From NCBI GenBank assembly GCA_030998015.1, contig JARWMV010000236.1, positions 1 through 64,000 of the forward strand: 64,000 nt of DNA, in the 5' to 3' direction. The notes below the pieces were generated by a model that searched no databases, had not been told where the DNA came from, and saw only the letters and a list, made by a program, of their open reading frames with translations. Made by a program: the position numbers and the translations under genes. This document shows positions 13,391-60,436 of this stretch, in pieces (positions within the stretch are counted from its first letter, which is position 1; each line of letters starts with the position of its first letter). This DNA is from Ceratorhiza oryzae-sativae. Taxonomy: Eukaryota > Basidiomycota > Agaricomycetes > Cantharellales > Ceratobasidiaceae.

Positions 13391-13399
13391 TCCTACCAC

Positions 13400-33789: not shown

Positions 33790-33891
33790 ACCCAGAGACG
33801 TCCTGCCTTGATCTTTGGAATTATAAGATTGTTCCTTAAGTTCACACCAGAGGAATTGGGGGACAATAGTATAAATTCCAAGCAGACCAAA

Positions 33892-35599: not shown

Positions 35600-35718
35600 G
35601 GTTGGTGTGGTGTTTCCAGTGGTAAATGCTAGCCGATTTATATCTACAAAATGATTTTGTCAGTAAACAAACAACAGAGAAATCACGTGTTGTTCTTGGA
35701 ATGATTTTCAGGAAAGGG

Positions 35719-37266: not shown

Positions 37267-37454
37267 TCAAACCTGATGTAGCAAAGAGACATTAGCTTTA
37301 TATACTTTGTTTCTTACCTTAAACCTTGTCCTAAAACCTTTGGAAGGCTTTTCTTCATTGGCTAAAGCATGCATAGTCGATTGGACTAGCAAATCCTTCT
37401 CAAAGTCTACACCTATTTCTTGGTAGATTCTTCAAGGCATCTTCAGTGTCATTG

Positions 37455-40345: not shown

Positions 40346-43300
40346 TTAAAAATCCGAGTCAGAAGAAGAGCTAGAAGAATCAGATTCTTCCTCTTGGTCT
40401 TCAGATGGCTCAGTTTCAGATGATTCAGGATAATCATTGCAGGCAGCTTCATATTCAGCATAAGCAGTTTGTTCAGCTTCAATAGTTTCAGCAAAATAAA
40501 CTTGGACATTGTTAGCATTAGATTTATTATGCTTGCACTCCTTGTCATAGTGCATAAGACTTCCACAATGGATACAGCCTCTCATTCCTCTAGCTTTAGG
40601 AGTCCCTTTCTTATGTTTGGAAACATTAGAATTGTCTGGAGGGAAGGGCCTCTTATAGCCTTTGAATTTATCAGGCTGCTTTGACTTGAACTTAGAGTTA
40701 GAAGAATTTACTGCATGAGCACTAGCTTTGTGACCATGCTTTTTCTGATGCTTTTCAGCCTTCAAAGCTTTGATCACTTCCTTGACTGTGTCATAGGTAG
40801 CTTGGTTGTTCATATGGCGAGGCCAATCTTGCAATAAGTCTTCTTGTTCCTTAATTCTAGTCACATAGGTGGACCAGTCTGCAATATCCTCATGGTTGAC
40901 TATAGTTCTCCATTGTGTAGGAGCTGACCTAGCCACTTCAGCAATGATAGTGAGGTCATCCCAATCTTCAACCATGTCAAGCAGTTTCTTTTTGCGAAGT
41001 GCATACTGAACTGGTGTTTCTTTATTGTTGCCTGAATCCTTGAACCTGGCTGCCAAAGCTTTGTTCCTAGCCTTGGTAATCCAAGTAGGAGTCCAAAAGA
41101 AACTAATTAAGCGAGCTCTCATCTGATTCCAATCTGTAGACATTCTAAGCCTTTGTTCCTCATTGAACTGATACCACCATTGTTTAGCATCTCCAGTAAA
41201 CCTGAATGGGATAGTCAGGGTGAGTCTGTTGTTCTCATTTAAACCCATGGCTATATAACGACTGATTTGGTCTATCCATTCATATAGTTCATCTGGATCA
41301 CCATCATACTCTGGTATCACTTCAGGCTTTAATTTCATGTCTAGATGAGGTCGATTATTTTGGTTGTTATTGTTACCATTTCCTCCAGCTCCTCTAGGGC
41401 CTTCTGGGCCTGGTGGACCTGGTGGACCTTGTGGACCATCTCTTCCATCCCTGCCATCCCTTCCAGGGGGACCTTGGTCTCCTGGACGTCCTGGAGGGCC
41501 TTGAATCCAAGGATAAGGACCATTAGGAGGATTTCCAGGGGGCCCTGGAGGTCCAGGTGGTCCTGGTGGTCCTGGTAGTCCTTGTGGCCTAGGAGTGTTG
41601 GGTGGAATAGGTGGAATGGGAGGAATATGAGGAATATGTCCTCCTCCTTGCTGAGGGTAACTTTGACCTACTGGAGGGTTAGGTGGCCCCTGTCCTCCTC
41701 CTGGAGGATTAGGTGGACCTGCACTTCCTCCTGAGAAATTCCTACCACTAGAGGCAGGAGGTCCAGTGGGAGGAGGTCCTGGTGGCCTCCTAGGTGGAGT
41801 AGAAGCCAGACCAGAGAATCCTGGTCCTAGATTTATCACAAAGGGTTGATAAGGATCAAACCTCTGAGTTCTAAATGTTTCAGCTTCAGTAGGTCTAGAG
41901 GCTTGTGGCATGTATGCTAGCATCAGCAGGTAATTGTGACTGAGGTACTAATGGCTGGAAACCTAATAAGGTATTCCCTTCAGGACTATAAACTGGCATC
42001 TTTGAAGGATCTCCAGTCATAGTTACAGAAGGTCCAGTAGGCTCTCTAAAACCTTCAGCCCTATGATCTTCTGTAGGCCTACCTGCTTCAGCATCTGAAG
42101 TTCTATTAGAACTCCTATGCCTAGGTCTCCTAGCTTCTTCCTCAGAAGAGTCTTCTTCACTAGTAGTAACAATAAGGGGAACAGCCCCTTGAGGAACAGT
42201 CCCAGAGTCATCCCTTACTGGCCTAGAAGGGGTTATTGGCTCCCTAGGTGGGTAAGGAGATGCTGGTCTTCCAGTATACTGTTCATGAGGTGGAAACTCT
42301 TCCTCAATAGTGACTGCATGACCTTTGCTAAGTCGACCCCTGAAAGGTTCCTTTCTAATAGCATTGTCAAAGGATTGACGTGGTCTAGCAGGTTTATTTA
42401 CCAAGGGAGAGTCCTGGTCCTGATCAGTATCATCCTCATTTACTTCTCCAATAGTGGGTAAAGCTGAAGTACCAGCTTCAGTCACTTGAGCAGGAGGTAA
42501 TAGAGGTTCTAGCACTCTTCCTGATTGCCTAGGACCTACTCCTATGCGTCTAGGATAGTCTTTCTCTACAGGAGTAAATGAAGTTCCTAGATAACTTTCC
42601 AAGTAAGTAGAAGGACCTCTAACTCCCAGAATGCGAGTAGCTTCTATTTGAGAAACTGATTCTGGAGTAAATAGAGCTTGTAGTCTCTTCTCACTTGGAG
42701 TCCTTATAGGAGTAATTGCACCTAAAGCTTCAGGTCTAGCTGGAGAACTAGTTACAGGGCCAAGGAAGCTCCTTCCCTGAGCCATAGCTGAAGTAGATGC
42801 AACTCCAGAAGGTTGAATTGCAGTCATGGTAGTATCCTCAGCAGAATCATCTGCTATCCTTGTGATATCTTCCACTTCCTGCTCTTCTATTTGAACTAGC
42901 TCCTCTCCACCACTCACTGGCTCATCTGGATCCTCCTGAACTTCTAGAGGTTTGAATTCTAGACGACCAGTAGGAGATCTAATTGAGTCAATAGTATGCT
43001 TAGGATGAGGGGCTGGAGCATATTCTGGAGTCTTGGATCTACTCTCAGAATTTTCCCACATTATTTCATTGAGCTCCCTTTGCTTCCCTTTACCAAGGTC
43101 TTGCATAGCTTGGTGTTCAATAAAGAGGTAAGCCAAAAAGCGCTCAACTTCATCCCTGAATAATACACAAGCAACTTCATGCTGTTTCTTACTGAAAGCA
43201 AAATGCTTCCTAGTTTCAGGGAATGCAGGAACATCTGGGTGAGGTATAGGATGCCTGCTCCTAACAGGGAGTAGTTGGGACTTGAAAGCAGAGAGCTTAG

Positions 43301-43829
43301 TCCTAAAACTCCTATGCCTGTTCAAGTCAATGAACATGACAGGTTCTCCAGATGCAGACCAAGACCATTCTGGCCTAAATGTACATAAATAATCCAATTC
43401 TTGTAAGAGATCCTTGAAGAATTCTCTACACCCAATAGATGGATATTTAATGTGCATTACATGGGGATGAGGACGTTCATATATCTTCCTACCTACTGCT
43501 CTAACTAACCTTCTCCTATCTGCTATCTCTGGATGCATCCTTGTTAGGTTTGTCATCCTAGTAGCAGCAGGTTGGTAAGTCAGATGCCTTTGCTCTCTAG
43601 GAGTAAGAGCAATATATGAACTAGATCCATTAGGAGGGATAGGCAAGTATTGTTCATAATCTACAGTATCCTGGTGATGATAACTATAGTCTGATTGTAC
43701 ATGCCTACCTCCTGCATCACTTCCTACCATGGAATCTGATACATAAGGATCTTCAGGTGGTAATGGGTGGTGTGTACTGTCCCAAAAACTTCCAGGGACA
43801 TGCACAGACATATTTGAAGTACTGGCCAT
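40346..43829 (-). pseudogene. gag: Gypsy-1 copy 2 Gag, one frameshift
   Basis: From ATG 43829 (MASTSNMSVHVPGSFWDS) it is open to 41895. A 2-nt loss near 41900 (CATACATGCC versus CATACATATGCC in copy 1) shifts the frame, and 41923-40346 supplies the rest. In total about 1,160 codons. Domains: N-terminal globular part, acidic Ser/Pro linker, collagen-like Gly-X-Y block (about 41600-41380), capsid-type domain ([14 protein letters not shown]), CCHC knuckle ([14 protein letters not shown]) and acidic tail. Otherwise free of stops, so it gives the best view of this unusual Gag. Confidence 0.9.
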
Positions 43830-43863
43830 TACAGTTCTTCTCCAATTCAAGATGAATTTGTAC

Positions 43864-44219
43864 TTAGGAATAATTTTCAAAATATGTTTCAGTTACAAAT
43901 TGATAAATGGCTTGATAAACTGTATCCCAGTAGCTGGTATGGGGTGACCAGAAAGACCTAATAAATGTGTGTTGAACTTTTATTGGTTGTGGTTGATCAG
44001 GAAGATGTTGAATATAGACTTCAAATTCAAGTCCAGCACTTAGAGCACTTGATACTGAATTTATTGGAATATATGGCCTATAATTCCTAAAGGTAAATGT
44101 CAGAGTAATATGTGGGGGTGGACCACCAGTACTACTATAACCTAAAACAGTAATTGTAGGGTTTGGGGCTTGAATCCAGACAGGATCTATCTCAAGAGCC
44201 CAAGATATGTTGTTGTATT
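43864..44219 (-). pseudogene. Gypsy-1 copy 2 possible pre-gag exon
   Basis: The counterpart of 2028-2470. After a CACAG splice-acceptor-like sequence the frame is open for about 118 codons to TAA at 43866-43864. It includes ISWALEIDPVWIQ and TSYWDTVYQAIYQFV, nearly identical to copy 1. It stops some 35 bases before the gag ATG. The conserved frame between copies supports coding, but no start codon is visible and the protein is not recognised. Confidence 0.45.
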
Positions 44220-44329
44220 CTGTGGTAAGAAAGTATTTCTATACACAGAGTGGTCAAAATTGAGAAATTCCGTTTTGGGCAATAGATTGACCAAAAATGG
44301 CAATGTTAGTTGATAGTTACTTGATGTAA

Positions 44330-44350
44330 GGACCTGGGTCGCTTCACCAA
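44330..44350 (-). other. Primer-binding region, Gypsy-1 copy 2
   Basis: On the - strand TTGGTGAAGCGACCCAGG directly follows the LTR, the less decayed version of the copy 1 site (CGACCC where copy 1 has TGACCC). Confidence 0.55.
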
Positions 44351-45652
44351 TGTTACGGGTCAGGGTACACTTGAATATCTAGAGCTTAAGCAAATGTAGA
44401 TATGTTAGTATACACTAATCGTACTCAATACTTCTTAGACTAGAGTAAGAAGGCTCAAATAGTTGCAATGCGATCAAGTAACACTCAAGGTAGTCTTAAT
44501 CTTTCACAGTGTAAACTGACTAATTTATAGGTATAAAGAGCAAGACTACTATGGTCAGGTTCCCTTAGATATCTTAAATGTAGTTCAGCCCTAGTCGCTT
44601 GGACTAACTGATACTAATCTTAATACTAGGCTTAAGCGATAGCTTATAGGATAGATGGTGGGCTGCCTAATGCGTGTACTTCCTCAGCTACAGGTACTTA
44701 GATTTCCTCTAATAGCTGGTACTTAATGTCACGCTCAATCAGGCAATATTGTATCCTTATATATCTCTGTATATAAGATACAATCTCAGACAGTATATAA
44801 CTAATATGGTACTTTATTCCTCAGTACTAGTTATATAAGAAATCACACACAGACAAGAGAAATAGAAAGAGAAAAAGAAACCAATAACCGGTCTGGGTTG
44901 AGTAGTGAAGGGAGGTGGTCTGGAAGGGCCTCAGAGGAGGTCCTTTTATACCCTGAGGAGGGCATTCCAGAGCCAAATAGATACATGCATGCCAGTGCGA
45001 TCATCAAAAGAGGGTACTGCTATACTTGGGGTACACCCTAGCCCAGTATAGGATAAAAGAGTAAAGACAGGGTGTGGATCGAAGGCATTGATGCATCTGA
45101 GACCTGCTATTGGCTTGTAGATCATATTATCATAGTATATACATGTAATGAATGGAGGCTACATCTCAGTGAGTCATAAAGTGAGTCAGAGAAGCTTCTG
45201 GATCAATTTGGGAAGCTCTCCTGACTCACTGGAGTCATTAGATCTTGATTGATGGTCCAGTAAGATTCTAATGATCTTCGGGCCATTCCGGCGCGAGGAT
45301 CCGGTGGATCGCGACGATCTTCGGGCAGTAGATACCGCCGAAGATTAGCTATCGATAGAGCACAAGATCGCTTTGATAGCGTAAGCGGTTGCTGAGATAT
45401 GAGCGGTGCGATGTTGTAATCAATATCTCCTGATAAGAGGAAATATCGCAACCTCTGTATCTCTCTGAGATCTTATCGTAAAAACTTAATAATATATGCG
45501 TTGGAGAGCGGGAATTTTGTACTATTTAATGAAACAGAAAATAGTACAATTCAGAGCGCATACAAATTTGAGTATTTCACAATTTAATTACAGAGGCATC
45601 GCTTGTTGGCAGAGCAGACTAAAATAATAGAAAATGTTAGTGATCCATAACA
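44351..45652 (-). repeat. Gypsy-1 copy 2 5' LTR (1302 bp)
   Basis: It starts TGTTATGGATC at 45652 and ends ACCCGTAACA at 44351 (- strand), next to the primer-binding region. Nearly identical to 31221-32525. It has a single 18-bp minisatellite unit. Confidence 0.93.
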
Positions 45653-46365
45653 ACTGGGCACAACCTTACCACTGGAAACTACTAGCAGGTGAACGCACAG
45701 GTATCCTTGCATCCTGGAAGGATTTCAGGAAGGGATTCCTGCATGCTTTTAACAACCCAGTCATAAAGGAAAAGACCATCTGGAAACTAAGGAAATTAAC
45801 GCAAACCAAGAGTGCATTGGATTATGCTACCCAATTCCAGATCCTGATCCAAGAGGTAGACTGGAACCAGGAAGCCCTCAAGGACCAATTCAGGGAAGGG
45901 TTAAAACCCAAAGTACAACAAGAGATCTGAAGGATTGAAGTACTGGCAAATGAAGCTGAAGGTCCATCATATACCTTAGATCAATTAATTGACTTTGCCT
46001 GCAAAATGGATGACATGCAGTTTGCAAACCAGAAAATGAATGCAAGGACCAGCAACTCATCAAATTCAACCTGGGCACCAGCAAAATACAAACAAGGGGG
46101 GAACAAGCCTTCAGGGACCAGCAGCAAACAGGGGAATACCCAAACTAACAACATGGTAAGGATACCAAACAGTGAAAAAGACAGGCAAAGGAAAGAAGGA
46201 CTCTGTATCAAATGTGGTAAATCAGGGCATGTCCTGAAGGACTGCCAAGGCCAGTGGACCTACAACAAAGCTAAGATACAAGGGAAGGCCAGCAGACAAG
46301 TTGAGAAGAAAGCAGCTCTGAGTTGGAAAACTAATTGGTCCTACCACTTCCATGTTGGAGGACCC
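45653..46365 (+). pseudogene. gag: Gypsy-2 copy 2 Gag, second part with zinc knuckle
   Basis: This resumes the gag cut at 31220. Capsid-type sequence (GILASWKDFRKGFLHAF, KSALDYATQFQILIQE) ends at TGA 45928-45930, and another frame holds the nucleocapsid part with CCHC knuckle CIKCGKSGHVLKDC near 46204 and a basic region (KIQGKASRQVEKK). It runs straight into the protease region. Confidence 0.82.
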
Positions 46366-48275
46366 TGATATAACCCCTACCACAGATGTATGTTACCTCA
46401 AGAAGTCTAGTAATCAATCAATAATATACACTATGGTAGAGGGAATCATGGAACCAGCAAAGACACTGATTGACTCAGGATCTTCAACCAACTTCATTGA
46501 TAAGGCCTATTCAAGGGAAAAGGGGATTCTGACCACCCCCCTCAAACACAAGAAATCAATTGTGGCCATTGATGGAAATGAAATCAAGGATGCCATAGAA
46601 GAAAGGGCAGAACTAAATATTGAAGTGGAAGGGAAGACACTGAAATGCTCCCTTTATGTGATGACCCTAGGTGACACAGACATAGTCCTAGGGAAAGAAT
46701 GGCTTGAGGAAGCAGAACCTATCATAGATTGGAAAGACCTTACCATCTCATACCCAGACAAAATCAAGGCAAGGGCAGCAAGTGAAAGCCTACAAATCCC
46801 AGAAGAATTTAGGGATTTTGAAGACCTGTTTGGGGAAGAAGGTTTCCAAGAACTTCCACCCCACTGAGGAAACCTGGACTTCAAAATGGACCTGATCAAG
46901 GGAGCAGAGCTGCCAAAGCCTGCAAAGAGGTACAGTATGTCACCAGCAGAAACAAAGGTGCTCAGGGAGTACCTAGAGGAGGAACTAAGAAATGGAAAAA
47001 TAAGGCCCAGCCAGTCAGTTGTAGCTGCACCCTGTTTCTACATGAACAAAGCAGATGGAGGGCTTAGGTTGGTAGTTGACTACCATAAGTTGAATGACAT
47101 CACCAAGCCAGACAGGTTCCCACTTCCAATTCAAATAGAATTGATTGAGAGGCTGAAGGACACAACCATCTATTCAAAAATGGACATTCAATGGGGGTTC
47201 AACAATATCAGGGTAAAAGAGGGAGACAAATGGAAAACAGCTTTCAGCACAGGAGAAGGCCAGTTTGAATGCTTGGTCATGCCATTTGGAGTAAAAGAAG
47301 GACCAGGAACCTTTACAAGGTTCATGATGGAAAAGTTCTGCAACATAATAGATGATTATGTGGTAATCTACATGGACGATGTACTAGTGTTTTCCAGAAA
47401 CATGGAAGAACATGTACAACATGTCAGGGAAGTGTTAAGAAGAATGAGGGAAAACCACCTCTTCCTCAAACCACACAAATGACAGTTCTTTGTGAAGGAG
47501 GTAAGCTTCATCGGAATTGTCATATCCCCAGAACGGATATTGATGGAAAAGGAAAAAGTAAAGGCAGTACTAGAATGGCCAGAACCTAACACAGTTAAAG
47601 AAGTCCAAGCATTCCTAGGCTTAGTGGGGTTCTATAGAAGGTGGATAGAGAAGTTTAGCACCTTAGCCAAACCCCTCACAGATCTCACTCAAAAAGATGT
47701 CAAATTCCTGTGGGAAAGAAAACAACAAGAAGCATTTGAAGCTATTAAAGAAGCAGTAGCAAGAGAACCAGTCCTAATCCACCCAAACCCAAACAAGCCA
47801 TACATACTGGAAACAGACGCCTCAGGAGTGGCCATGGGGGCGGTACTAAGCCAAAAGGGTGATGACAACCAATTGCATCCAATTGCCTTCCTATTGAAGA
47901 GCTTCACCCCACCAGAGAAAAATTATGACACCTACAACAAGGAGTTGCTTGCAATTGTTAGATCCTTAGAGCACTGGAGGTTATACCTAGAAGGGACAGA
48001 AGAACCTATTGTGATATACACTGACCATAGGAACCTCCAGTACTGGCAAAATGCCCAGATGTGGAATAGAAGGCATGCCAGATGGTATCTCACTCTGGCA
48101 CCCTTCAATTTTCAGATTGTGTATAGGCCAGGGAAACTCTCACAGAAGCCAGACACCCTTTCCAGGAGGAGTGACCATGGGGACACCCCTATGGAACCAC
48201 AGATCATGATTCCAGAAGAAAGGTTCATAGGTTTCAAGGCAGAGGTACAGGGAAACTCCTGGGAGGGAGCTTAAA
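46366..48275 (+). pseudogene. pol: Gypsy-2 copy 2 Pol: protease, RT, RNase H, broken
   Basis: Protease LIDSGSSTNFIDKAYS near 46470. RT from about 46880: VVAAPCFYMNKADGGLRLVV, SKMDIQWGFNNIRV, VMPFGVKEGPGTF and active site YMDD at 47369-47380. Tether and RNase H: LETDASGVAMGAVLSQKGDD, PIVIYTDHRNLQYW, RPGKLSQKPDTLSRR. Breaks are few: TGA at 46865, TGA at 47480 (Cys in copy 1) and a frameshift near 48265. All catalytic residues are retained, so this copy shows the enzyme set of the element well. Confidence 0.9.
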
Positions 48276-48320
48276 GAAGCTCAGGAGGAAGATGAATCTA
48301 TCAGATCCTTAAGGCTGAGC

Positions 48321-49746
48321 ATGGCAAATAAAGAACAACTACCGCCCTCAGTACAGAAGGAATTTAGACAGTATGAAATGAAGGAGGGCCTATTAAGGTA
48401 TGATGATAGGCTCTACATCCCAGATGACAAGGACTTGAGGTTGAGTCTCCTTGAGGAGTGCCATGATGCCCCTGTGGGGGGTCATCAGGGACAAGCCCAA
48501 ACACTAGAATTACTATCAAGGGATTACTACTGGCCAGGAATGAAGGCCCAAGGAAACCGATACGTGGAATCTTGTGAAATGTGTCAAAGAAGCAAAGGAC
48601 ACAAACAAGGCACTCCCCTGAAGCCCTTACCAATCCCATGGAAACCATGGGCAGATGTCGCATATGATTTCATTGTCAAATTACCTGTCTCAAAGGGGTA
48701 CGACAGCATCTTGACAGTTGTAGATTGCTTCTCCTGGCAGGCCCATTTTGTACCATGTCTGGAGAGCACCAATGCAGAAGAACTGGCAGAAATATTCATA
48801 AGGGAGATATGGAGACATCAGGACCCCAGAAACCACTGTCTCAGACTGAGGGCCAACCTTTAACAGCCAATTCCTAAAGGCCCTATACAAGGGAATTGGG
48901 ACAAAGCCCAGATTCTCCACCACCTTCCATCCAGAAACAGATGGACTGTCAGAAAGAACAAATCAATGGGTAGAAGGGTTCTTAAGAACCTTCTGCAATT
49001 ATAGACAAGATGATTGGGTAAAATGGTTACCCATTGCTGAATTCTGCCATAACAACCATGTAAATGCTACCACAGGACAAACCCCATTTGAAATGGTATA
49101 TGGAAAAAACCCAAGATGGGTTGTCTGAGAGGGAGAAGAACTGTCCAAGGCACCTGCTGCAGACAACATGCATAATCAAATGGAAAAGGTATGGGATGAG
49201 GCAAGAGCCTCAATGGAATTACACCAAGAAATGGAAAAGACAGGGAAGGAATTCAAGGTAGGGGACAAGGTTTGGCTGCTCCTAACAAACCTCTCGTCCA
49301 AGAGACCTTCCAAGAAATTGGACAACTGAAAAGGAGGCCCTTTTGAAATCACAGATAAGATCTTGTCCCATGCGTATCACCTGGACCTACCTAAAACCAT
49401 ACACATACACAACATATTCCATGTAAATCTCCTCTTGCCATTCACAGAAGATAAAGACTTCCAAAGAAGGCAGGCCAAACCACCACCAATCATAACAGAA
49501 AAAGGAGAGGAGGAGTATGAGGTGGACCACATTGCAAATTATGAATGGTGGAATGGCAAGCTGTTTTACCAAATCAGATGGAAGGGCTACGACCCAATAG
49601 AAGACACAATGGAACATGCCAGCAAGTTTGCTGACATGAAAGAGGTTCTAAATGACTTGCAAAGGCACTTACCAGATGCACCAATGCCAGTCAAGATGAG
49701 TCAGCACTCAGGTGACTTGAAAGGCAGGCCAAAGAGAACCAAATGA
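48321..49746 (+). pseudogene. pol: Gypsy-2 copy 2 integrase with chromodomain, broken
   Basis: The zinc-binding part has LEECHDAPVGGHQGQ, SRDYYWPGMK and CEMCQRSKG. The core has Asp in VAYDFIVKLP, and the region around the second Asp is degraded (the segment ends IREIWRHQDPRNHC). The Glu region follows after a frameshift near 48850 (ETDGLSERTNQW in another frame). C-terminal part: HAYHLDLPKTIHIHNIFHV, then a chromodomain EEYEVDHIANYEWWNGKLFYQIRWKGYDP (positions about 49510-49600), giving the chromovirus assignment. Ends TGA at 49744. Confidence 0.87.
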
Positions 49747-49817
49747 GGACCTGGAAAGCTTTAAAAAGAGCCATCCAGGATACCTAAGAAAGGCCAGAGC
49801 CCACTCTACCACCTCAC

Positions 49818-50650
49818 TTGCACCACAATACACCTGCAAAACCCCAAAACATGCCTTTCATCACTCACCCAGTTGCACATCCCAACCGTTACATACCACT
49901 TGCTGAAAATCAGGTGGCCCCACTTCAGCAGCCACCCACCACTAGGTGGCCAGCACCCTACCCTGGCAGGGAAAATCATCCCAAACTAGGGATGTACTGC
50001 TCCAGCGTGGAAGATGCCCAGAGGTATGCTGAGTGACTGTTGCCAGGGGCTAACCTAGTGTACATCCCAAAGAAGTTAAGGGATGAAAGGAACTGGATCC
50101 CAGGTTAGGGGTCCTGATATGGCATGGAAGCCGGAAGCCAACAACAAGAAACGCCTTGCTAAGAACACCAATGTATGTCATTGATGATATTTTGGGTCCA
50201 ACAGTCGACATGGTGGCCAAGGCAGCAAGACAACAGAGGAGGGCCACAGGCCAAATGGCAGACAGGGGGGACTGGGAGGTGGAGTGCCAGGCCAAGGCAT
50301 TGTTGGAAGAGTGGAAGTTGACACCAGCCGCACCGTATGTGGGACTGCTCGAAGCAACTACCACTGATGAGATGTTTACTGCTATCAGGACAAAGCAGGC
50401 AAACATGAGCTACTTCTGAAATTGGGTGAAGGTGCACCCAAACAAAAACACCAATTACAACACTGATATGATGAGCCTTATGTCAAGCCTAGAATCACTG
50501 GTCATGGCTGCAGAAGAAGCAAAGCCAGTGATAAAGGAACCCACCCCAGACCCAGCTATGGAGGAAGCCAAACAGGACTGGGACCAGTGGGAAAACAAGC
50601 TTGTTGAAGCTCTGGAGGAGGTGCCACTGTTGGAACCAGCCCCCATATGA
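49818..50650 (+). pseudogene. Gypsy-2 accessory + strand ORF, unknown, broken
   Basis: After the chromodomain a Pro-rich frame (49818-50036, MHHNTPAKPQNMPFITHPV) ends at TGA 50034. A second frame (50156-50650) contains VIDDILGPTVDMVAKAARQQ, a stop TGA at 50417 and an acidic end (DPAMEEAKQDWDQWENK, EALEEVPLLEPAPI). They may be one gene split by a frameshift near 50100. Copy 1 lost this region by deletion, so I cannot check conservation. No recognised domain; the C-terminal half looks helical and acidic. It converges on the - strand gene, the two 3' ends being 81 bp apart. Confidence 0.45.
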
Positions 50651-50731
50651 CCACTTTGCCTCCCATGGATTTTTTCTCAAAATGTATAAGAGTTTTATTT
50701 TACATATCAAACCTAATACATTTTTTACTCT

Positions 50732-51264
50732 CTATTTACATTTGCCCTTGAGGGGCCAGGTATAGGGCTTCTTGCCTTTTTTATCCTTCTTATTGGTCTG
50801 AACAACTGACCAGGTAGTGGGCTGCAGCCAAGGGGCCTCCCTGCCTGGGAAGTCGGCCATGTAGTTCTGGAAACACCCAGAACCAGATGCTGCAAAGGGC
50901 AAAGCCTCATCAAACAAGGGAGCAGAGCCCTCCTCAAAGAATTCAGCAAGAGTGGCCTGGTGAGACTGCTCCTCAAAGGACTTGTAGTCCTGATCAACAA
51001 GCACCCAGACACGCTCAAGGGTGGCCTCATGGGCCTGACCATCAAGGAGGATGCACTCTTCTACAGAACAAGTTAGCAATGTGAGAACAATGAAGAATGA
51101 GCACACGTACCTGGCACCCCACAGAAGAACCAATCCCCAACACCTCCATAGAAGTCTTCAAGGGAGGCATTGCACACGGCATTGCAGTAGGCACAGTACT
51201 CCCCCTCAGGGAGAGACCAGCAGGTGCAGTCAAGGGGATTGTAGTTAAGGGAAACAACACGCAT
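50732..51264 (-). CDS. Antisense intron-containing gene between pol and Rep in Gypsy-2
   Basis: Exon 1 51264-51111, intron 51110-51061 (50 nt, GTACGT...TGCTAAC...CTGTAG with a textbook branch site), exon 2 51060-50732. The splice keeps frame and gives 160 residues without any stop, unusual in this decayed nest. The N-terminal 50 residues are Cys-rich (LDCTCWSLPEGEYCAYCNAV), possibly metal-binding. The middle is acidic (TLAEFFEEGSAPLFDEA), and the C-terminus basic (NKKDKKGKKPYTWPLKGK). It is transcribed away from Rep, sharing a 380-bp intergenic region, an ambisense layout like that of many CRESS-DNA genomes. I do not recognise the protein and do not claim it is a capsid. Confidence 0.6.
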
Positions 51265-51645
51265 AGTAAATCAAAGTCTGGTCAGGTGACACCAACAGAC
51301 ATGTGACCATCTGCCAGAAAACAAACAACAAAGCACAGGAATCACATGACCTAGCCTAGTCACATGAATATATGCTATCCCCTAACTACTGGAGGGGTTG
51401 GAGAGGGGGGACCAACCAAAGTGGAGGAGCAGAGGCCCTGAGCATAGCAAGGAATAAGGCCGATGTGGGGGAACACAGGAAGGGCACCCCTTGGAGATGT
51501 GTCATAACCAGCACAAGCCTGCATCAGGAAACCACGTGATCACAACAACCAGAAAGGGTATATCTAGGGGACGCCTTTGGGGGTAAAAGGGGCTATCATT
51601 TCATGCCCTCCCCACAAGACACATCTACCTCAAAAAACACCAACA
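51265..51645. other. Divergent intergenic region upstream of Rep
   Basis: About 380 bp between the start of the antisense gene and Rep. It holds several CACATG/CACGTG-type sites, a small hairpin (51379-51397) and, near 51552-51600, a segment (GAAAGGGTATATCTAGGGG) retained in copy 1 directly upstream of Rep. It could hold promoters for both genes. No standard CRESS origin nonanucleotide (such as TAATATTAC) is visible. Confidence 0.4.
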
Positions 51646-52932
51646 ATGCTAAGCGAAGATGGCTTGAATGCAGGAACACCCCAGCCAAACAAATCAAGTG
51701 CAGGGCGGAGGTCAGCATTGCCATTGCTGGTGCCCTCAGAATCAAGCTGAGCCCCCTCACCCGCTTCTATGCAGCTTATGCTGATGGATTGCAGGTCCGA
51801 AGAGCTGACTGAAACTGCACAGGCCCCCTGATTCTGTGTCCAGACCAGGGCAGTGCTGCTGACCTGGTCAAAGCTATGTGATCAGCCCTCAAGTGGGCTT
51901 GCCACCTGATATGAGGCATTCTGCCACCACCAGCCCAATCACTGGGCAACCTTAGCTGTGGTTGAACAGCACAACCTGGAGGAGCCAAACTACAACCCGA
52001 CCTGGCCCCTGCACGTCCACACACTCTCCATCAGTCAGGAACAGAAGGGCAGGTGGAACACCCAGAATGTGGGGTTCTGGGACTTCGAGGGGCAACACCC
52101 CAACATATGGCCCAAAGACCTCAAGGATGGGCCAGGAGGCAACCCAGCAAGGGATGCCTTCAACTATCTCTGGAAGGACATCAGAGCTAATGGCAAGGAG
52201 ATAGAGGATTTGATGGTGGGGGACCTCACCTTGGAAAGGTTGGAGGAGATCTTGGTGAAGGGAAAGGGCAGAAAACAGTCAAGGATGGAGGCAGACTTGG
52301 AGGATGGGATGGAGATTGTCACCTTGGCAATGAAACAGGAGTACTACCAGGTGTTCAAGCGCCTCTGCCCCCTCCAGATGGTGATGATGTGGAACTTGGT
52401 ACAAGCATATGCCAAGTACACATACAAGGAAGACTGGGGTTGCATGCCTGCAATCCCTGTGGAGTTAGAGGTCCTGGAAGACCAGGAGCACATCAACCAA
52501 GCAGACAGATGGTTTGCCAACGAGGTCGAGAAGAGGGGAAGAGGGGTGCACCATCGCATCCTGGTGATAGAAGGAGAAACTGGAACAGGGAAAACAGCAT
52601 ATGCACAATCCAAGGGCTGCCACAGCTGGATGTGCAATGTGTGGAATGTGGGCAACTTGTCAGAAGATGCTGACATTTGGATCCTGGATGACATGGTCCA
52701 GTCAAATGGGAAGTACTTGCTCAAGGGCCTGAGCCAGTACAAGGTGGACTTCACAGGCAGGTACATGCACATGAAATCGATGAAGGTATGGCTGACAGTT
52801 ATTCTGGGAAATAGCTGGTCAGCAATCATGAAGTGTTGGTCGGACATAGAGGGGGAAGAAGGAGACTTATGGGTATCAAGAAATGTAGGATGGGTGTATG
52901 CAGGAGGAAAACCATTCTTTGTATTCCCTTAG
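51646..52932 (+). pseudogene. rep: CRESS-DNA-type replication initiator (Rep), better preserved copy
   Basis: One frame of 429 codons from ATG 51646 to TAG 52930. Endonuclease motifs: motif I VLLTWS (51853-51870), motif II HVH (52012-52020), an HPNI block, motif III with catalytic Tyr at 52165-52167 followed two residues later by Lys. Helicase motifs: Walker A GETGTGKT (52573-52596), Walker B DIWILDDM (52672-52695), motif C with Asn in VILGNS (52792-52815). Size and order fit geminivirus-like Rep. In-frame TGA codons at 51748, 51829 and 51907 break the endonuclease half, while everything from 51910 to the end is open, so the helicase half is intact. It lies between the antisense gene and the polypurine tract of Gypsy-2 on the element's coding strand. 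Confidence 0.87.
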
Positions 52933-53066
52933 AATAATTTACTGTATTGTACAACTTCTGCTATGCCCATCCAAACAGTCAGGGCATTCTGAGAAGAAGC
53001 AGACAACTCCTCACCCCTAAATAACCTCCACAACAAAGAAAAGAAAAAACAATCTCATGTAACAAA

Positions 53067-53161
53067 GAGGTTAAGGGGTCTAGCCTGACTCAGCCTGACC
53101 TCATCGAACAATACTGAATCAGCCAAAAGGTCATTGGTTCAAGTCCAGTGCCCTTAACCTC
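53067..53161 (+). other. tRNA-like hairpin after Rep, Gypsy-2 copy 2
   Basis: Same 95-nt unit as 17785-17879, with the 11-bp terminal stem fully conserved. The T-arm-like stem CATTGG/CCAGTG around TTCAAGT pairs over six positions (one G-T). Differences from copy 1 are few and of transition type. Some constraint or recent common origin is implied; an actual tRNA identity is not shown. Confidence 0.4.
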
Positions 53162-53228
53162 CTTGGTGCATGAGATTCCTTTTGCATGAGGATCTAAACC
53201 ATGTCTCAAGGTCCCCCAAGATATGTCC

Positions 53229-53242
53229 AAAGGGGGGGATAA
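53229..53242 (+). other. Polypurine tract, Gypsy-2 copy 2
   Basis: AAAGGGGGGGATAA directly before the 3' LTR, identical to copy 1. Confidence 0.75.
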
Positions 53243-53630
53243 TGTTATGACCCATCAAACGGACATAACAGAGTAACTGAATATTTTTATGGATTTATGG
53301 CATTTTTCCTAAGCAGAACAAGCCATAAACAAGGTCATGTGATCTCAGTGCTTAAACCAGTGCTTATGGTGGTTACCCTGAACTTGCTCCAGCATTTCTC
53401 TCCATTGTTACTTGGAGTGAGGAGCTAGGGCTCTGTGACAAATGCAAATTTGAAAACATGTTTGACACAAACAATTATAAACACTGTTTTCAAACAGTAA
53501 CTCACCATTTGAAACTGGTCACCCTTGAAAGCTGCATGTGACATACTGCCATTAGTTGGCGTAATGCCATTGTGGCAGAGACAACCACATTCATACTTAC
53601 ATTTCACCACCACCTATTCCCCAGCTTCTA

Positions 53631-55249
53631 TTGACAGCAATGCCAGTACCTAGCAGTCAGGGCTCACCAAGCCAAGTGCCAATTGACCCCTGTCTCCTTG
53701 AACTTTTGCGTCACCTTCATACTTTGCCAGTGTCCCTCACAGATCACCTGAGCATTTACCCATTTATTGGCTTTAAACTTGAGAAGCATGATATAGAGCA
53801 CTATGGGTCAGCACAGAGTGCTCTAGACCATAAGCTTAAGCTTATCTTTGGTTCTTGAGTTGAAGGCCATTCAATTGAATTCCAGGGTTGTGGGCAGTCG
53901 CTTGAAGCAATTGTACATACATTTTCAAAATACATAGATGGGGAGGAGGGTGAGAACAGGAATCTATGGTTGTGGGTGAAAGAACTGACAGTTGCAGCAG
54001 CTGAAGCATCGAACCCTGTGAGCATATTTTTGGTGACCAACTGCTAGCACTCTTAGTGCTAATGAAAGAAATAAAATAAAAAATAAAAAAACACTTCAGA
54101 AAGCACAAAATTCACCATTGCCAGACAAGCACAAGTCGCACACTCCACGTCGTAGCCAGAAGTCAAGTTGATTAGTCAAACCCAAGCTTACTGAGTCAAG
54201 CATTCAGGAGGCAAAGGTGAGGAGCGCTATCTGGGTGAGTACAGTATATACATCTGGATGAGATTATGCTCACCCTCCATTTTCCTCAGCCAGTATCCTC
54301 ACAATCCAGCTGACTTGGAGGACAATATGCCTGCTTCAGAATTGGGGCCAGGCCATCAATGCAATGAGCTCCTAGACAAGCTTGTTATTCCTTGTCATTC
54401 AATTATTAATCCATTGCACCTACAAGTTTGTTGTCGAGGCTCTGGCTGTTGTTGGTCTTAGGCTGAACCCAGACAATTGATAAGGGTTCTGCCACATGCA
54501 GCCAGGTGCTCTGGGTTTGATGAGGAGCTGCGCTCAGAAGCAAAGCATCAAGTGGCTTCCCTGTCACTGGCAGCAAAGCTGCAAGACGCTGATGAAAGTG
54601 CAGGCAAGCCAGGAGCTCTAGACAAAACACAAGTGCAGAAAAATAATAAGGTTAATCATGCGTTGCTCAAATGGTTGTGTGATTGCATGATACCGCTGTC
54701 GTCAGTTGACTGCTTCAGGTGGAAGGAGTTCATGAGTGTAATTGATCCTGACACAAGTACTGCATCTGGGACAATGATTGCTGAAAATTTTGTGATGACT
54801 GAAGCAGCATATATACATGAACAGTCCATCAAAACACTATTGCAACAAGAGTGGCTGACACTTTCATTCAATGGCAGAACTACAAGGAAACACGATTCCA
54901 TATATACTGTACATGTTACAACACCTATCTTATGAGAACCATATCTGATGGAAGGAAACAAGTTTTCTGGGGTGTCCCACACTGCAGAGCAGGTATGCGT
55001 TATCCTGCAAAGGGTATGTATGTGCATATTAACCTGCCAGATATATTTCTGACATGTTGGAGACCCTATGCGATATTGGGCCAGAGCATTTTGCATCTGT
55101 TGTCTCTGATAATGTAGGAAACACACAAGCTGCCTGTGCATTAATTGAGACCCAATACCCATGGATTATAGCTCTACAGGATGCCTGTCATCTCCTCAAT
55201 AACACTGCCAAGAACATTGGCAAGCTCAAATATTTTCTCCCTTGCATTT
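53631..55249 (+). pseudogene. hAT-1 transposase, N-terminal and DUF659-like part, broken
   Basis: Fragments in several frames, partly separate exons: 53631-53858, 54258-54461, 54477-54935 and 55054-55249. Recognisable are LKWLCDCMIPLSSVDCFRWKEF, TLSFNGRTTRKHDSIYTVHV and FASVVSDNVGNTQAACALIE, then the conserved QDACHLLNNTAKNIGKLKYF, as in DUF659/hAT transposases of basidiomycetes. One acidic catalytic residue is likely in VVSDN; the usual D in the GWT-type motif reads N. It is cut at 55249 by the solo LTR. Confidence 0.75.
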
Positions 55250-56560
55250 TGTTACGGGTCAGGGTACACTTAAATATCTAGAGCTTAAGCAAATGTAGAT
55301 ATGTTAGTATACACTAATCATACTCAATACTTCTTAGACTAGATTAAGAAGGCTCAAAGTAGTTGCAATGCAATCAAGTAACACTCAAGGTAGTCTTAAT
55401 CTTTCACAGTGTAAACTGACTAATTTATAGGTATAAAGAGCAAGACTACTATGGTCAGGTTCCCTTAGATATCTTAAATGTAGTTCAGCCCTAGTTGCTT
55501 GGACTAACTGATACTGATCTTAATACTAGACTTAAGCAATAGCTTATAGGATAGATGGTGGGCTGCCTAATGTGTGTACTTCCTCAGCTACAGGTACTTA
55601 GATTTCCTCTAATAGCTGGTACTTAATGTCATGCTCAATCAGGCAATATTGTATCCTTATATAACTCTGTATATAAGATACAATGAATCAGACAATATAT
55701 AACTAATATGGTACTTTATTCCTCAGTACTAGTTATATAAGAAATCACACACAGACAAGAGAAATAGAAAGAGAAAAAGGAAACCAATAACCAGTCTGGG
55801 TTGAGTAGAGGAGGAGAGGTGGTCTGGAAGGGCCTCAGAGGAGGTCCTTTTATACCCTGAGGAGGGCATTCCAGAGCCAAATAGATGCATGCATGCCAGT
55901 GCGATCATCAAAAGAGGGTACTGCTATACTTGGGGTACAACCTAGCCCAGTATAGGATATAAGAGTAAAGACAGGGTGTGGATTGAAGGCATTGATGCAT
56001 CTGAGACCTGCTATTGGCTTGTAGATCATATTATCATAGTATATACATGTAATGAAAGGAGGCTACATTTCACTGAGTCATAAAGTGAGTCAGAGAAGCT
56101 TCTGGATCAATTTAGAAAGCTCTCCTGACTCACTGGAGTCATTAGATCTTGATTGATGGTCCAGTAAGACTCTAATGATCTTTGGACCGTTCCGGGGCAA
56201 GGATCTGGTGGATCGCGACGATCTTCGGGCAGCAGATACCGCCGAAGATCAGCTATCGATAGAGCATAAGATCGCTTTGATAGCGTAAGCGGTTGCTGAG
56301 ATATGAGCGGTGCGATGTTGTAATCAATATCTCCTGATAAGAGGAAATATCGCAACCTCAGTATCTCTCTGAGATCTTATCGTAAAATCTTAATAAAATA
56401 TGCGTTGGAGAGCGGGAAATTTGTACTATCTAATGGAACAGAAAATAGTACAATTTGGAGCACATACAAATTCAAGTATTTCACAAATTAATTACAGAGG
56501 CATCGCTTGAGGTTGGCAGAGCAGACTAAATTAATAGAAAAATGTTAGTGATCCATAACA
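55250..56560 (-). mobile_element. Gypsy-1 solo LTR (1311 bp) inside hAT-1
   Basis: A complete Gypsy-1 LTR on the - strand (TGTTATGGATC at 56560, ACCCGTAACA at 55250) flanked by CATTT (55245-55249 and 56561-56565). It keeps the TATA box, AATAAA and hairpin. Many CpGs remain. This insertion post-dates the hAT, which post-dates Gypsy-2 copy 2. Confidence 0.92.
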
Positions 56561-57804
56561 CATTTCGAAATTCAAATCCATAATTACATATTTCCATTCA
56601 TTGTCCTATGCTGCTCAACACCTCACTGCACTTCAAGTCCTCTACCACATTGCTAGAGGTCTAGCTGAGGTAGCGGTAACCTGCTTCACAACACATTACT
56701 ATGTGTCGCTTTCCACCTTGCTTTGCTTGCCACTAATCCAAGAGTTGATCTCTTCAGGGGTACTTGATCTGAAACCAGTGAGCATACCTCATAGTCGCAT
56801 ATTGGAGTGTCATTTAATGCACCAGCACCCAGGACTCCCTTATATACTGGATGCTTGACCACACTGAAGTCCAGAGATTTGAGGAGGAGCTCAAACAGTT
56901 GGTTGCTGTGCTTGAGCCTTTTGCATGAGCTATAAAGTGTCTGGAATCCAGCCATTCGATGCTCTCTGATGTCTATCTATTTTGGTTGGCCATACTGTCT
57001 CGATTTCAAGACATTTTCAAGACCAACAATCAGATCTCGGGTCCACGTCTACCTAATGTGCTCATAGGCAAGATAATGAGCATACTGAATGGCAGGCATG
57101 CAGAAATGTTTCAGGGCCAAAACGGCTTGGTTTACCTTGCTGCATTCTTCCTTGACATCCATAAGTTTATTGTTATCTTGCTATAGTTTTGGTACTGATT
57201 TTTATTTCACAATCCAGGCTACTGGGGGTTGGATGTATTCCTGTGTCACCCAGCATGCATCCACACTGAGAGTTGGAGTGGCCCACATATCCCAATTACA
57301 GGTGCCGATCTACTTCCTGACCAAGATCTGCAACGCTTGCTCCCTGCCTATATATTAACTGGCCATGTTTTAATCAACATACTTGGGTGCATATACAACA
57401 AAGACCCTAATGCACCTCTCTTTGTGTGCTATGCAAGTTGGGCTGAGGTTGAAACCACCTTTTGTAACCAATTAATACTCTATACCCATGGACTGAGTCC
57501 ATTCCACCTGATACCAAAGCCAACATTCGAGCACACATACTGGGACTCCCTTTGCACTGTCCCCTCAGCAGATCTTCTTGTGCATTTAGGCTTGCTCCTC
57601 ACCTGCGTTGTTCCAAATTCAATGGTGGAAGAGCAATCAATGTCAACAATTACAAAACTTAACTCTCCCAAGCAAGCTGCACAGAAGGTTTCAACATTAA
57701 TTGATATGACAACAATCCAACAGCACTATAAGTGCAAAGAAAATTGCAATTTTGAGGTATGTATACTTCAATTAGCTGTGGGTGCAAATTTGATTCAATT
57801 GTAA
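56561..57804 (+). pseudogene. hAT-1 transposase, C-terminal part with dimerisation domain, broken
   Basis: Continues the transposase. HIARGLAEVAVTCFTTHYY is the conserved lead-in, then fragments in several frames, and a 191-codon frame (57229-57804) carrying the hATC dimerisation domain: HTYWDSLCTVPSADLLVHLGL, PNSMVEEQSMSTITKLNSPKQ, TTIQQHYKCKE. These are the classic C-terminal hAT signatures. Stops and frame changes before it make the gene non-functional, although some breaks may be introns. Confidence 0.75.
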
Positions 57805-58921
57805 TACAGATTTCCTGTCTCTTGTGCCCAGCAGTTTGTTTTGCAGAGCTTCCCCAGCCCACTGAAATGGCCCAAAGCAAGGAAATGGTGACAGAGGGCC
57901 AAATTCTAGCCAGCTCTGAGGTGTATATGTGTGATGTACTTGCTCTGGGGGTGTGCACATGCGAGAGTGATAGTTCACTAGCCCAGGAAGGCAGTGCGTG
58001 ACATTTCGAAGTTGAAGCCACAGATGGGATATTCCTTGCATCTAATGTGCTTGTTGATATGCTCTCCAACCACATTTCTAGTCCTACTAAGCGCAGTAAT
58101 ATCCCTGAACCATCAGTCCCTGAAATCACCCCTCCACAAAAGCATCAGAAAATCGATCTCTCAACACTATCTTACTGATCACAAAATAAGGCTGACTGCC
58201 CTCCTGACTACCCCTCCTCCTTTTCCTTTTTCTTCTCCTCTCCCCTCTTTTCTCTTCTCATTTTTCGGCCAGTTCAATCTCACACTCATGTGATTCTTTA
58301 AAGATTTATCAAACAAATTACTGGTCATGGGTTATCATCATTGAAAACAGTTTCAAACTGTTTTTATGTGTTTTTCACAATGTGAGTTTTCAGTTTGAAA
58401 CATGAAAACCATTTGTCACAGAGCCCTACAAGGAGCAAGTTGTTGTGTGATCTTGGCACTTACTGCAGGATCATGTGACCTCAGTGCTTATGGTGGTTAC
58501 CCTGAACTTGCTCCAGCATTTCTCTCCATTGTTACTTGGAGCAAGGAGCAAGTTGTCACGTGATCTTGGCACTTACCACAGGATCATGTGACCTCAGTGC
58601 TTAAACCTTGGACCTCATGTGGCTCTATAAGATTTGGAGCTGCACAAACTTAAGATAAACAATTACCTAAACCATAGTACTGTATATAACCTGCACCTAC
58701 TGCAGATTGTGCTTAGATAATACATCCACAGCCACTGCAGCCACAGGCGTATATAAGAAGGATAAAGCAAGAATGGACACCTCAGCTTGCTTTATCTTGT
58801 CAACCACCATAGACCATAGCAAACACTGTAACTAGAACACTCAATACATACCACATAGCACCAAACTGTCAACACAGCCACTACTTAAGTGCTTTGCAAG
58901 GAAGCATCCAGAGGGTCACAA

Positions 58922-60436
58922 CACTGTGACAGGTTGTGTAGGCTGATTTGCACTTAGAGTGAATAGTAAGAATTGTTCAAAATAAATGCTAGATTACTCC
59001 TACAAATTTTTGTAGTGCAGATTGAAGCTGATAACAACCTTCTTAAGAGACAACACTTTTGTGTGTCCCATTTGATTTGATGCTGACAAAGCAAAAATGC
59101 ATGCATCCCTGAACTCTCGAGCAGAACAGAACATTGTATTATAGGAATATTAACATAAACTAATAACAAGTATTTCCTCCATTCACATCAATCAGTTCTT
59201 GCACCCAACACTCCATAGAATCATAGAATTTATCAATGTAAGGCTGAGGAATACAAACACACTCCTCCTGGAGAAATTCCCACAGCTCATTTGCATTCCA
59301 CAGCAAATTCAGGCATATGTGAACCAACAGTCCAAGCAATCCCATACATTCTCAATTGGGTTCATATCAGGGCTGCTGGCTGGCCAGGGAAGGATCATGA
59401 GGTGGCAGTTGGCAATCCAATCACATGTTTGGATTGCTGTGTGCTTTGGATCATTGTTGTGCTGGAAGATAACATGGCAAGGTGGGATCAAGTGGTCACA
59501 CAGGGTCCCCATGAGCTTGTTGCCCAGGATTTGGTGTATTGCACAGCTGAGAAACACCTGTCAATAGAATACAGTCAGCCCCACCCTGTCAGACATAATA
59601 ATGCACCCCCAAACCATGGCGCTCCCACCACTGTGTTTCACCATTTTTCAAGTGTAGCATGGATCAATAGCAAGCCCTGGACATCCCCAGACATGAAGGG
59701 GGCCATCACTACCAAAAATGTCAAACTGTCCAGGTTGCATTGGTCTCAAACCCAATCACAACAAGCCTTGAGGTGCTGCTTGGTAAGCAAGGGGGCATGG
59801 TGACAGGTGTAGTTATAGATGCCAAGCTCCTAAAGACCACACCAAACAGTTGTCATCAATACATGGGGGAAATAGTTGCAGCAGAGCTTGGCTGCCATGG
59901 CCAATTGGTTTCAAGACAGCAAAAGGGCAGCAAATTTCACATCAGTGAGGTGTAACTTGTGGGGGCAGCCAGAGCAAGCACTAATAGAGTACTAGCTATG
60001 TGTCTTCTAGGAGTTTGAGCATGTGCAGTAGACAGTAGAGCAAGGAACACCAGGTTTGGTGGCAATGAGGCAAATAGTCAAGCCTGTCTTACACAAATCT
60101 TGGCAGAACATTGAGGGTGATGAGAAGGCATGTCTGAAGGAGTTTGGGTAGAGTATAACCATCTAATTGACCTTTATATGCATGGTTGAGGTTGCAGAAA
60201 ATAGGAGAGCAGAAAATATATGCACACCCACATATCAAATGGGACAATATCAATGCTGATTCCCCCTATTTCTTCTCAAAATCATCTTCTATGAGCAGGA
60301 AAAATGGTGATGCAAGAGGCATCAGGTATACACATAACTTTTATTATTCTATGTCACTGTAAATCTGCCTTCACAGCCTGTTGTAGCAGCTTAAAGTTGA
60401 AATGGTCATGTGTCCTGTTTGATTTGTCACCCAGTG
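58922..60436 (-). mobile_element. Tc1/mariner-like element (decayed)
   Basis: A relic of about 1.5 kb. The right end reads CCCAGTG followed by TA (complement CACTGGGTGACA), and the left starts CACTGTGACA, overlapping the last CA of the Gypsy-2 LTR; these ends are similar but not identical, and TA is not present on the left. The size and the encoded transposase fit Tc1/mariner. It begins exactly where the target duplication of Gypsy-2 copy 2 should be. Confidence 0.65.
59160..60000 (-). pseudogene. Tc1-like transposase, broken
   Basis: On the - strand: GSDGPLHVWG, VKHSGGSAMVWGC, then HNNDPKHTAIQ with the second catalytic Asp and SPDMNPIENVWDCL with the Glu of the DD34E triad, and a C-terminal segment (FYDSMECWVQELIDVNGGN) ending at 59160. 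Stops interrupt it (for example between GLTVFY and QVFLSC). The first Asp region is blurred. The N-terminal DNA-binding part, expected at 60000-60250, is too decayed to read. Confidence 0.8.

What the first reader, a model, noticed from the sequence alone, without database searches (positions are those of the whole stretch)
49747..53242. An LTR retrotransposon that carries a geminivirus-like Rep gene
Seen: two Gypsy-2 copies at different target sites both have, between pol and the polypurine tract, a long frame with HUH motifs I-III and the SF3 helicase Walker A, Walker B and motif C. Known: Rep of this kind starts rolling-circle replication of circular ssDNA and is found as isolated fossils in fungal genomes. 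Inference: the gene was captured once by a chromovirus and then spread with it. In both copies the frame is intact apart from a few TGA codons, some at CpG-decay positions. It was therefore probably coding while the element was active. A retroelement encoding its own nicking enzyme/helicase would be unusual; it could act on circular retro-DNA or replication forks.
Basis: partly seen in the sequence, partly recalled or inferred. Interest (0 to 1): 0.88.

Follow-up and report, generated by a model that had tools for sequence, protein, structure and literature searches.

The report
Retrotransposon family carrying a Rep-like gene
A family of jumping genes in what appears to be a fungus carries, in over a hundred copies, a gene resembling the DNA-copying starter protein of small circular viruses, and that gene shows signs of having been kept working by natural selection while the family was spreading.

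Summary
A Rep-like gene lies between the chromodomain end of pol and the polypurine tract of a Ty3/gypsy chromovirus family. The window's own genome (48.8 Mb) holds at least 123 Rep loci; 99 of the 123 have the same upstream gene, ORF-A, within 5 kb on the same strand, 0 on the opposite strand. Four elements with Rep inside are flanked by 5-bp target duplications. Between subfamilies A and B, Rep is under strong purifying selection (omega 0.06-0.10 outside CpG; wrong frames 1.4-3). New: Rep is one of three cassette genes; ORF-A (sense) and ORF-B (antisense, with an intron) are also constrained. Not shown: that the protein is geminiviral (best Pfam match is below cut-off, no usable model, no nonanucleotide origin), or what it does. 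My mechanism, Rep amplifying the element's own DNA, is a guess (about 0.3). The literature library failed throughout, so novelty in print is unchecked.

The parts
10780..18743 (+). Element copy 1: 5' LTR 10780-11447, 3' LTR 17961-18743, target duplication ACCAT; internally deleted
16321..17650 (+). Rep of copy 1: exon 1 16321-16512, predicted intron 16513-16561, exon 2 16562-17650; stops at 16625 and 17216
29387..58923 (+). Element copy 2, split by two nested insertions; 5' LTR 29387-29943, 3' LTR 53243-53427 continued at 58427-58923; no target duplication seen
45634..49746 (+). gag (rest), protease, RT, RNase H, integrase and chromodomain frames of copy 2
49851..50650 (+). ORF-A of copy 2, broken; genome match at 50078-50647 with 2 TGA; the start at 49851 is inferred from intact copies
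50732..51264 (-). ORF-B, antisense: exon 1 51264-51111, 50-nt intron 51110-51061 (GTACGT..GCTAAC..TAG), exon 2 51060-50732
51265..51602 (.). Region between the divergent ORF-B and Rep; in other copies it holds repeats with TCAYRTGA palindromes, which also occur in the LTR
51603..52932 (+). Rep-like gene of copy 2: exon 1 51603-51794, predicted 49-nt intron 51795-51843, exon 2 51844-52932; one stop at 51907
53229..53242 (+). Polypurine tract directly before the 3' LTR

Best explanation
A Ty3/gypsy chromovirus lineage acquired, between the chromodomain end of pol and the polypurine tract, a three-gene cassette: ORF-A (sense), ORF-B (antisense, with an intron) and a Rep-like gene (sense, divergent from ORF-B). 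SHOWN: the cassette moves with the element, and all three genes were constrained as proteins between subfamilies. INFERRED: the Rep-like protein is a HUH endonuclease joined to an SF3 helicase, made from two exons. INFERRED, about 0.3: Rep nicks and unwinds the element's own extrachromosomal DNA, such as circles formed after reverse transcription, so that host polymerases make more copies before integration. The confidence below is for everything except this last step.
For: At least 123 Rep loci; 61 of 123 without a stop over the matched part. 29 of 30 nearest loci run from Rep into the LTR. ORF-A within 5 kb upstream on the same strand in 99 of 123, RT within 7 kb in 70 of 123; opposite strand 0 and 2. 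Four elements with Rep inside and 5-bp duplications: window copy 1, L056/L031, L057/L033, L060/L061. Of 4 RT copies fetched from the 39 without a Rep row, 3 hold a broken Rep in place. Rep omega A x B, 130 pairs: CpG 0.27, other transitions 0.06, transversions 0.10; wrong-frame controls on 36 of those pairs 1.44 or more. ORF-A halves 0.10-0.36; ORF-B 0.15-0.42. Catalytic residues invariant or nearly so in 23 aligned sequences.
Against: Homology to known Reps is weak: Gemini_AL1_M E 0.027 for one full-length protein, 0.0038 at best for a piece, cut-off not reached; 7 of 23 members match it at E up to 1, fewer than nSTAND3 (16) and PRMT5_TIM (11). The HUH piece matches no Pfam family. The structure model failed (mean pLDDT 40.7). 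No NANTATTAC origin motif in the stretches scanned. The predicted Rep intron has a weak donor (GTCCGA). 22 of 123 Rep loci have neither ORF-A nor RT in the lists. Inside subfamilies non-CpG transitions also look constrained (A x A 0.23, B x B 0.14, few events), so a clean split into selection before and neutrality after insertion is not shown. Nothing bears directly on function.
Confidence: 0.75

Rival explanations
1. Rep and its companions act on the host rather than on the element's DNA: they counter silencing or push the cell into DNA synthesis, as geminivirus Rep is reported to do in plants (recalled).
For: The family shows heavy CpG decay: 33 of 36 exon-2 stops in 45 copies are TGA. No canonical origin motif was found. 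The cassette brings two further genes without Pfam relatives.
Against: No LxCxE motif in Rep of L031 or L033 or in ORF-A of L031. The constrained residues include those of nicking and ATP hydrolysis.
Confidence: 0.25
2. Rep is a separate mobile element or endogenous virus that inserted into some gypsy copies.
For: Rep has its own upstream region and a divergent neighbour gene, like an independent replicon. 22 of 123 Rep loci have no ORF-A or RT row nearby.
Against: Whole elements are flanked by 5-bp duplications; ORF-A to Rep spacing is 1245-1594 bp in 71 of 123; LTR follows Rep in 29 of 30. At least one of the 22, window copy 1, does lie in an element.
Confidence: 0.03
3. Passenger DNA: Rep rides along without function and is open only because the copies are young.
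For: LTR pairs of some copies differ by about 2%, and RT is as often open as Rep (54 of 104 against 61 of 123).
Against: Omega between subfamilies is 0.06-0.30 outside CpG with wrong-frame controls above 1.4, and constraint follows a frame switch.
Confidence: 0.05
4. Not a Rep: a P-loop ATPase of another kind, with HUH-like motifs by chance.
For: No significant family match; other Pfam families score as well.
Against: The motifs lie in order, at 70, 123, 144, 174, 310, 344 and 385 of L031 Rep; 0 of 200000 shuffles fit. The Gemini_AL1_M match covers 11-106 of 107 profile positions at the expected place; nSTAND3 covers 20 residues around Walker A.
Confidence: 0.1

Closest known systems
Ty3/gypsy chromoviruses
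   Same: gag, protease, RT, RNase H, integrase and chromodomain in order, LTRs with TG..CA ends, polypurine tract, 5-bp target duplication
   Different: Three further genes between the chromodomain and the 3' LTR, one antisense and one Rep-like
Rep of geminiviruses, genomoviruses and related circular ssDNA replicons (motifs recalled)
   Same: Order and approximate spacing of HUH motifs I-III and SF3 Walker A, Walker B and motif C; weak match to Gemini_AL1_M
   Different: Encoded by a retrotransposon; below family cut-offs; no nonanucleotide origin found; different N-terminal exon
Endogenous Rep relics in fungi, for example Laccaria (recalled, not read)
   Same: Rep-like gene in a genome inferred to be fungal
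   Different: Part of a high-copy retrotransposon and protein-constrained; whether earlier relics were of this kind could not be checked
LTR elements with extra or antisense genes (plant gypsy elements, HTLV antisense gene; recalled)
   Same: Additional frames between pol and the 3' LTR, antisense coding
   Different: The extra genes include a Rep-like protein; the antisense gene has an intron

Membership tests
Ty3/gypsy chromovirus | RT, RNase H, integrase, then chromodomain | tested here: met
   Pfam over cut-off for RT, RNase H and integrase zinc domain; Chromo 26.2 bits over cut-off 25.1 in L031, 24.3 just below it in window copy 2
Ty3/gypsy chromovirus | LTRs and short target duplication | tested here: met
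   4 elements with 5-bp duplications; window copy 2 without one
HUH-SF3 Rep of circular ssDNA replicons | HUH motifs I-III and SF3 Walker A, B and motif C in order | tested here: met
   motif definitions recalled
HUH-SF3 Rep of circular ssDNA replicons | Significant match to a family profile or solved Rep | tested here: inconclusive
   Gemini_AL1_M 15.0-17.7 bits, cut-off 24; HUH piece 0 families in 3 tested; no Rep among PDB matches
HUH-SF3 Rep of circular ssDNA replicons | HUH and SF3 folds | tested here: inconclusive
   single-sequence model, mean pLDDT 40.7, not searched further
HUH-SF3 Rep of circular ssDNA replicons | Stem-loop origin with NANTATTAC | tested here: not met
   none in L031, L033, L056, L057 or window 49001-53436; origins of other sequence are not excluded
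HUH-SF3 Rep of circular ssDNA replicons | Site-specific nicking and joining | not testable with these tools
   needs biochemistry
Helitron | Rep joined to an SF1-type helicase, no LTRs, no target duplication (features recalled) | tested here: not met
   LTRs and 5-bp duplications; SF3-type motif layout

The most novel reading that the evidence does not exclude
A retrotransposon with a hybrid life cycle: reverse transcription makes DNA circles, and the element's own Rep then amplifies them by rolling-circle replication before integration, joining two replication strategies in one selfish element.
Probability: 0.2. Interest if true: 0.95.

Novelty: new variant of a known kind. Interest (0 to 1): 0.8.

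Why it matters
Rep-like genes in fungal genomes are usually read as relics of viruses (recalled). Here one is part of a high-copy retrotransposon, constrained as a protein between subfamilies, with two companion genes that are constrained too. That makes the question of what a DNA-replication initiator does for an RNA-copied element directly testable, because natural open copies exist and the transcripts and extrachromosomal DNA of the organism can be sequenced.

Tried and rejected
Nested insertion and passenger DNA: rejected (see rivals). Canonical origin: none found. A 9-bp stem with a 9-nt loop (CGGCGCTTA..TAAGCGCCG) occurs twice in the LTR of L031 but not in L033 or the scanned window part, so I do not claim it as an origin. 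Relatives of Rep elsewhere: none in 4 protein-based scans of viral contigs or one motif scan, in plasmids or in prokaryote contigs. A second, divergent Rep in the genome: the Gemini_AL1_M profile found only two weak hits (E 0.51 and 0.77). Exon 1 of Rep and exon 2 of ORF-B have no Pfam match. The 3' segment that looks tRNA-like to me: no ARAGORN call in 6 sources, no Rfam match in L033:7700-8300, fold weakly or not better than shuffles (12 and 84 of 200 as good). Host: not named; a fungus is inferred from short introns and element type.

Rows dropped and limits. 53 Rep stretches were extracted; 6 of other length were left out, leaving 47; L002 and L028 were then dropped as misaligned at their 5' end, leaving 45 (13 A, 10 B, 22 C). 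The Rep copies fetched were chosen for long open frames, so the share of open copies among the 45 is not a sample; selection counts skip stop codons and codons with more than one change. One search used 36 of 130 A x B pairs for frame controls, one search used 56, 40 and 35 pairs of the three contrasts. ORF-A copies were chosen as long matches mostly without stops; in its N-half contrast 47.6 of 160 codons per pair had more than one change and were set aside. ORF-B: 28 of 83 loci fitted my splice pattern, many of the 83 not covering the region; 19 of the 28 give 160 or 163 aa; 7 and 10, grouped by their C-terminal residues, were used for omega. A first version of that pattern matched nothing because I had set the intron too long. 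Of 126 RT rows 7 distant ones were kept apart.
Full report
WHAT WAS CHECKED. The finding places a Rep gene between pol and the polypurine tract in two gypsy copies. Self-comparison of the window shows both: gag-pol 95.2% and the Rep region 92.9% identical. The frame 51958-52932 is open. Pfam recognises gag, protease, RT, RNase H, integrase and, just below its cut-off, the chromodomain in copy 2.

GENOME-WIDE. The window lies in a held genome of 48.8 Mb in 253 contigs. The 324-aa frame has 124 matches there, which I treat as 123 loci; 61 have no stop over the matched part. A full-length query gives 99 matches, 29 of them 428 aa long without a stop. The tool calls such counts lower bounds. In 29 of the 30 nearest loci (two are the window's own) the match runs from Rep into the LTR; in the other it stops short. 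Three 10-kb stretches of other subfamilies, L031, L032 and L033, show the order pol, ORF-A, ORF-B, Rep, LTR, with further insertions in L032. Of 123 Rep loci 99 have ORF-A within 5 kb upstream on the same strand and 70 have RT within 7 kb; the opposite strand gives 0 and 2. 101 have at least one of the two (limits 5 and 8 kb); 22 have neither, among them window copy 1, which does lie in an element. Of 119 RT copies 80 have a Rep row within 12 kb and 39 have none. I fetched 4 of the 39: three carry Rep in place, cut by another insertion (L084) or frameshifted (L085, L087); in L086 the element is interrupted inside ORF-B, before Rep would be reached. The other 35 were not looked at. None of 7 RT copies at 57-67% identity has a Rep row within 15 kb.

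INSERTION UNITS. Window copy 1 is flanked by ACCAT, the element of L056/L031 by TATGC, that of L057/L033 by CCAGT and that of L060/L061 by TGCTA (read by eye from the printed flanks). Copy 2 shows no duplication. For two further pairs the fetched pieces did not reach the 5' end, and one pair gave no alignment. LTR pairs differ at 12 of 579 bases (10 at CpG) in L056/L031, 13 of 555 and 12 of 587 in single alignments of L057/L033 and L060/L061, and 41 of 553 in window copy 1; repeats inside the LTR give several alignments per pair. So window copy 1 is old and some other copies are young.

SELECTION. 45 equal-length Rep stretches fall into groups A (13), B (10) and C (22). I counted single-change codons by class against all possible changes of that class. 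A x B, 130 pairs: omega 0.27 at CpG, 0.06 for other transitions, 0.10 for transversions. A x C, 286 pairs: 0.36, 0.15, 0.11. B x C, 220 pairs: 0.54, 0.30, 0.19. Inside groups: A x A 0.51, 0.23, 0.85; B x B 0.79, 0.14, 0.60; C x C 0.56, 0.41, 0.38. CpG and transversion values rise inside A and B, as expected of decay after insertion, but non-CpG transitions do not; their numbers are small. 36 of the A x B pairs in the two shifted frames and antisense give 1.44 to 3.05, apart from antisense transversions (28.1 on almost no silent changes). Pairs share branches, so these are three contrasts, not hundreds of independent ones. Of 36 stops in exon 2 of the 45 copies 33 are TGA, as CpG decay of CGA would give.

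A CORRECTION TO THE GENE. In 30-codon segments the long Rep frame has omega 0.86 to 1.22 over codons 1-60 in A x C and B x C, while the frame starting at an ATG 43 nt upstream (51603 in copy 2) has 0.15 to 0.18. From codon 61 the Rep frame has 0.04 to 0.18 and the other frame 0.87 or more. A x B agrees but has few changes there. A GT..AG pair enclosing 49 nt joins exactly these two frames and is present in 45 of 45 copies. The donor GTCCGA is weak, and inside the 49 nt the Rep frame still shows a third-position excess (2.91 against 0.77 and 1.0 differences per pair, from few events), so a +1 frameshift or a short overlap is not excluded. Under the two-exon reading copy 2 has one stop in Rep and copy 1 two. 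Group C then has no fully open copy among 22, group B 8 of 10, group A 13 of 13; the B and A copies were largely chosen for open frames.

THE OTHER CASSETTE GENES. ORF-A, 272-273 aa in the copies read, has 142 matches in the genome. Contrasts between its types give omega 0.10-0.36 for its halves; two groups compared over the full length give 0.70 at CpG, 0.35 and 0.06. It is a mosaic: some copies share one half and differ in the other. ORF-B runs antisense between ORF-A and Rep: exon 1 of 154 nt, a 48-50-nt intron with GT, a CTAAC-like branch site and AG (my search pattern required these), and exon 2, giving 160 or 163 aa in 19 of 28 loci. Its exon 2 has 150 matches in the genome, 138 without a stop. 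Omega for 70 pairs: 0.42 at CpG, 0.15, 0.25. Neither gene has a convincing Pfam relative. An intron on the antisense strand would survive reverse transcription because the sense genomic RNA does not present it (inference). The predicted sense-strand Rep intron would need an unspliced genomic RNA (inference).

MOSAICISM. L031 and L033 are 96.7-99.0% identical from gag to the first part of ORF-A, fall to 62% near the end of ORF-A, return to 97-98% in the ORF-B and intergenic part, then 85% in the Rep helicase part, 73% after Rep and 86% in the first part of the LTR (300-base steps). Subfamilies therefore seem to exchange modules, perhaps by template switching.

IS IT A REP? In L031: VLLTW at 70, HxH at 123, FWDFEGQHPNI at 144, YLWKD at 174, GETGTGKT at 310, IWILDD at 344, VILGN at 385. 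A pattern for the whole order fits 0 of 200000 shuffles and, of 55 frames of 300 aa or more in the window and loci, 22 frames, all in Rep loci. HxH, the Tyr, the following Lys, the Walker Lys and the sensor Asn are invariant in alignment A1 (23 sequences), the Walker B Asp residues nearly so. Motif names and the comparison with viral Reps are recalled. Gemini_AL1_M is the best placed profile match: E 0.027 for L033, 0.0038 for its C-terminal piece, seen in 3 of 4 pieces, always below cut-off; 7 of 23 members match at E up to 1, against 16 for nSTAND3 and 11 for PRMT5_TIM. Searches of PDB sequences, plasmids, prokaryote contigs and viral contigs gave no Rep. The fold model is unusable. I therefore call it Rep-like and do not file it under geminivirus Rep.

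MECHANISM. What a nickase-helicase would do for a retrotransposon is not shown. The palindrome TCAYRTGA occurs 6 and 8 times between ORF-B and Rep, and 3 and 4 times in the LTR, of L031 and L033, with one and zero sites elsewhere in these 10-kb loci. It may be a host factor site (E-box type, recalled) or a Rep-binding repeat. No NANTATTAC motif was found in L031, L033, L056, L057 or window 49001-53436. My preferred reading is action on the element's own extrachromosomal DNA (about 0.3); action on the host is the main rival (0.25).

NOVELTY. All literature calls failed for technical reasons, so I saw no paper and make no claim about what is in print. From recall, geminivirus-like Rep relics are known in fungi such as Laccaria; whether any was recognised as part of a retrotransposon I could not check. 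If so, the novelty falls.

Noticed in passing
31221-45652: Another LTR element with about 1.3-kb LTRs (99.4% identical) is inserted in gag of copy 2, flanked by ACTGG.
   Followed up: partly
53428-58426: An insertion with terminal inverted repeats (GGGCTCTGTGACAAATG) flanked by TA splits the 3' LTR of copy 2; it holds a solo-LTR-like piece 55250-56560 flanked by CATTT.
   Followed up: partly
53067-53161 and 17786-17879: Between Rep and the polypurine tract lies a segment with an 11-bp inverted repeat and a GGTTCAAGTCC stretch that looks tRNA-like; no tool confirmed a tRNA.
   Followed up: partly
L031:8174 and 8275: The LTR of L031 holds two hairpins with 9-bp stems and 9-nt loops, absent from L033 in the same scan.
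   Followed up: no
L031, L033: The element looks like a mosaic: recently shared gag-pol with divergent ORF-A end, Rep helicase and LTR start.
   Followed up: partly
51061-51110 (-): An antisense gene with a 50-nt intron is kept in a retrotransposon family.
   Followed up: yes
L031:9061-9666: An open frame beside the element looks, by eye, like a Tc1/mariner-type transposase.
   Followed up: no
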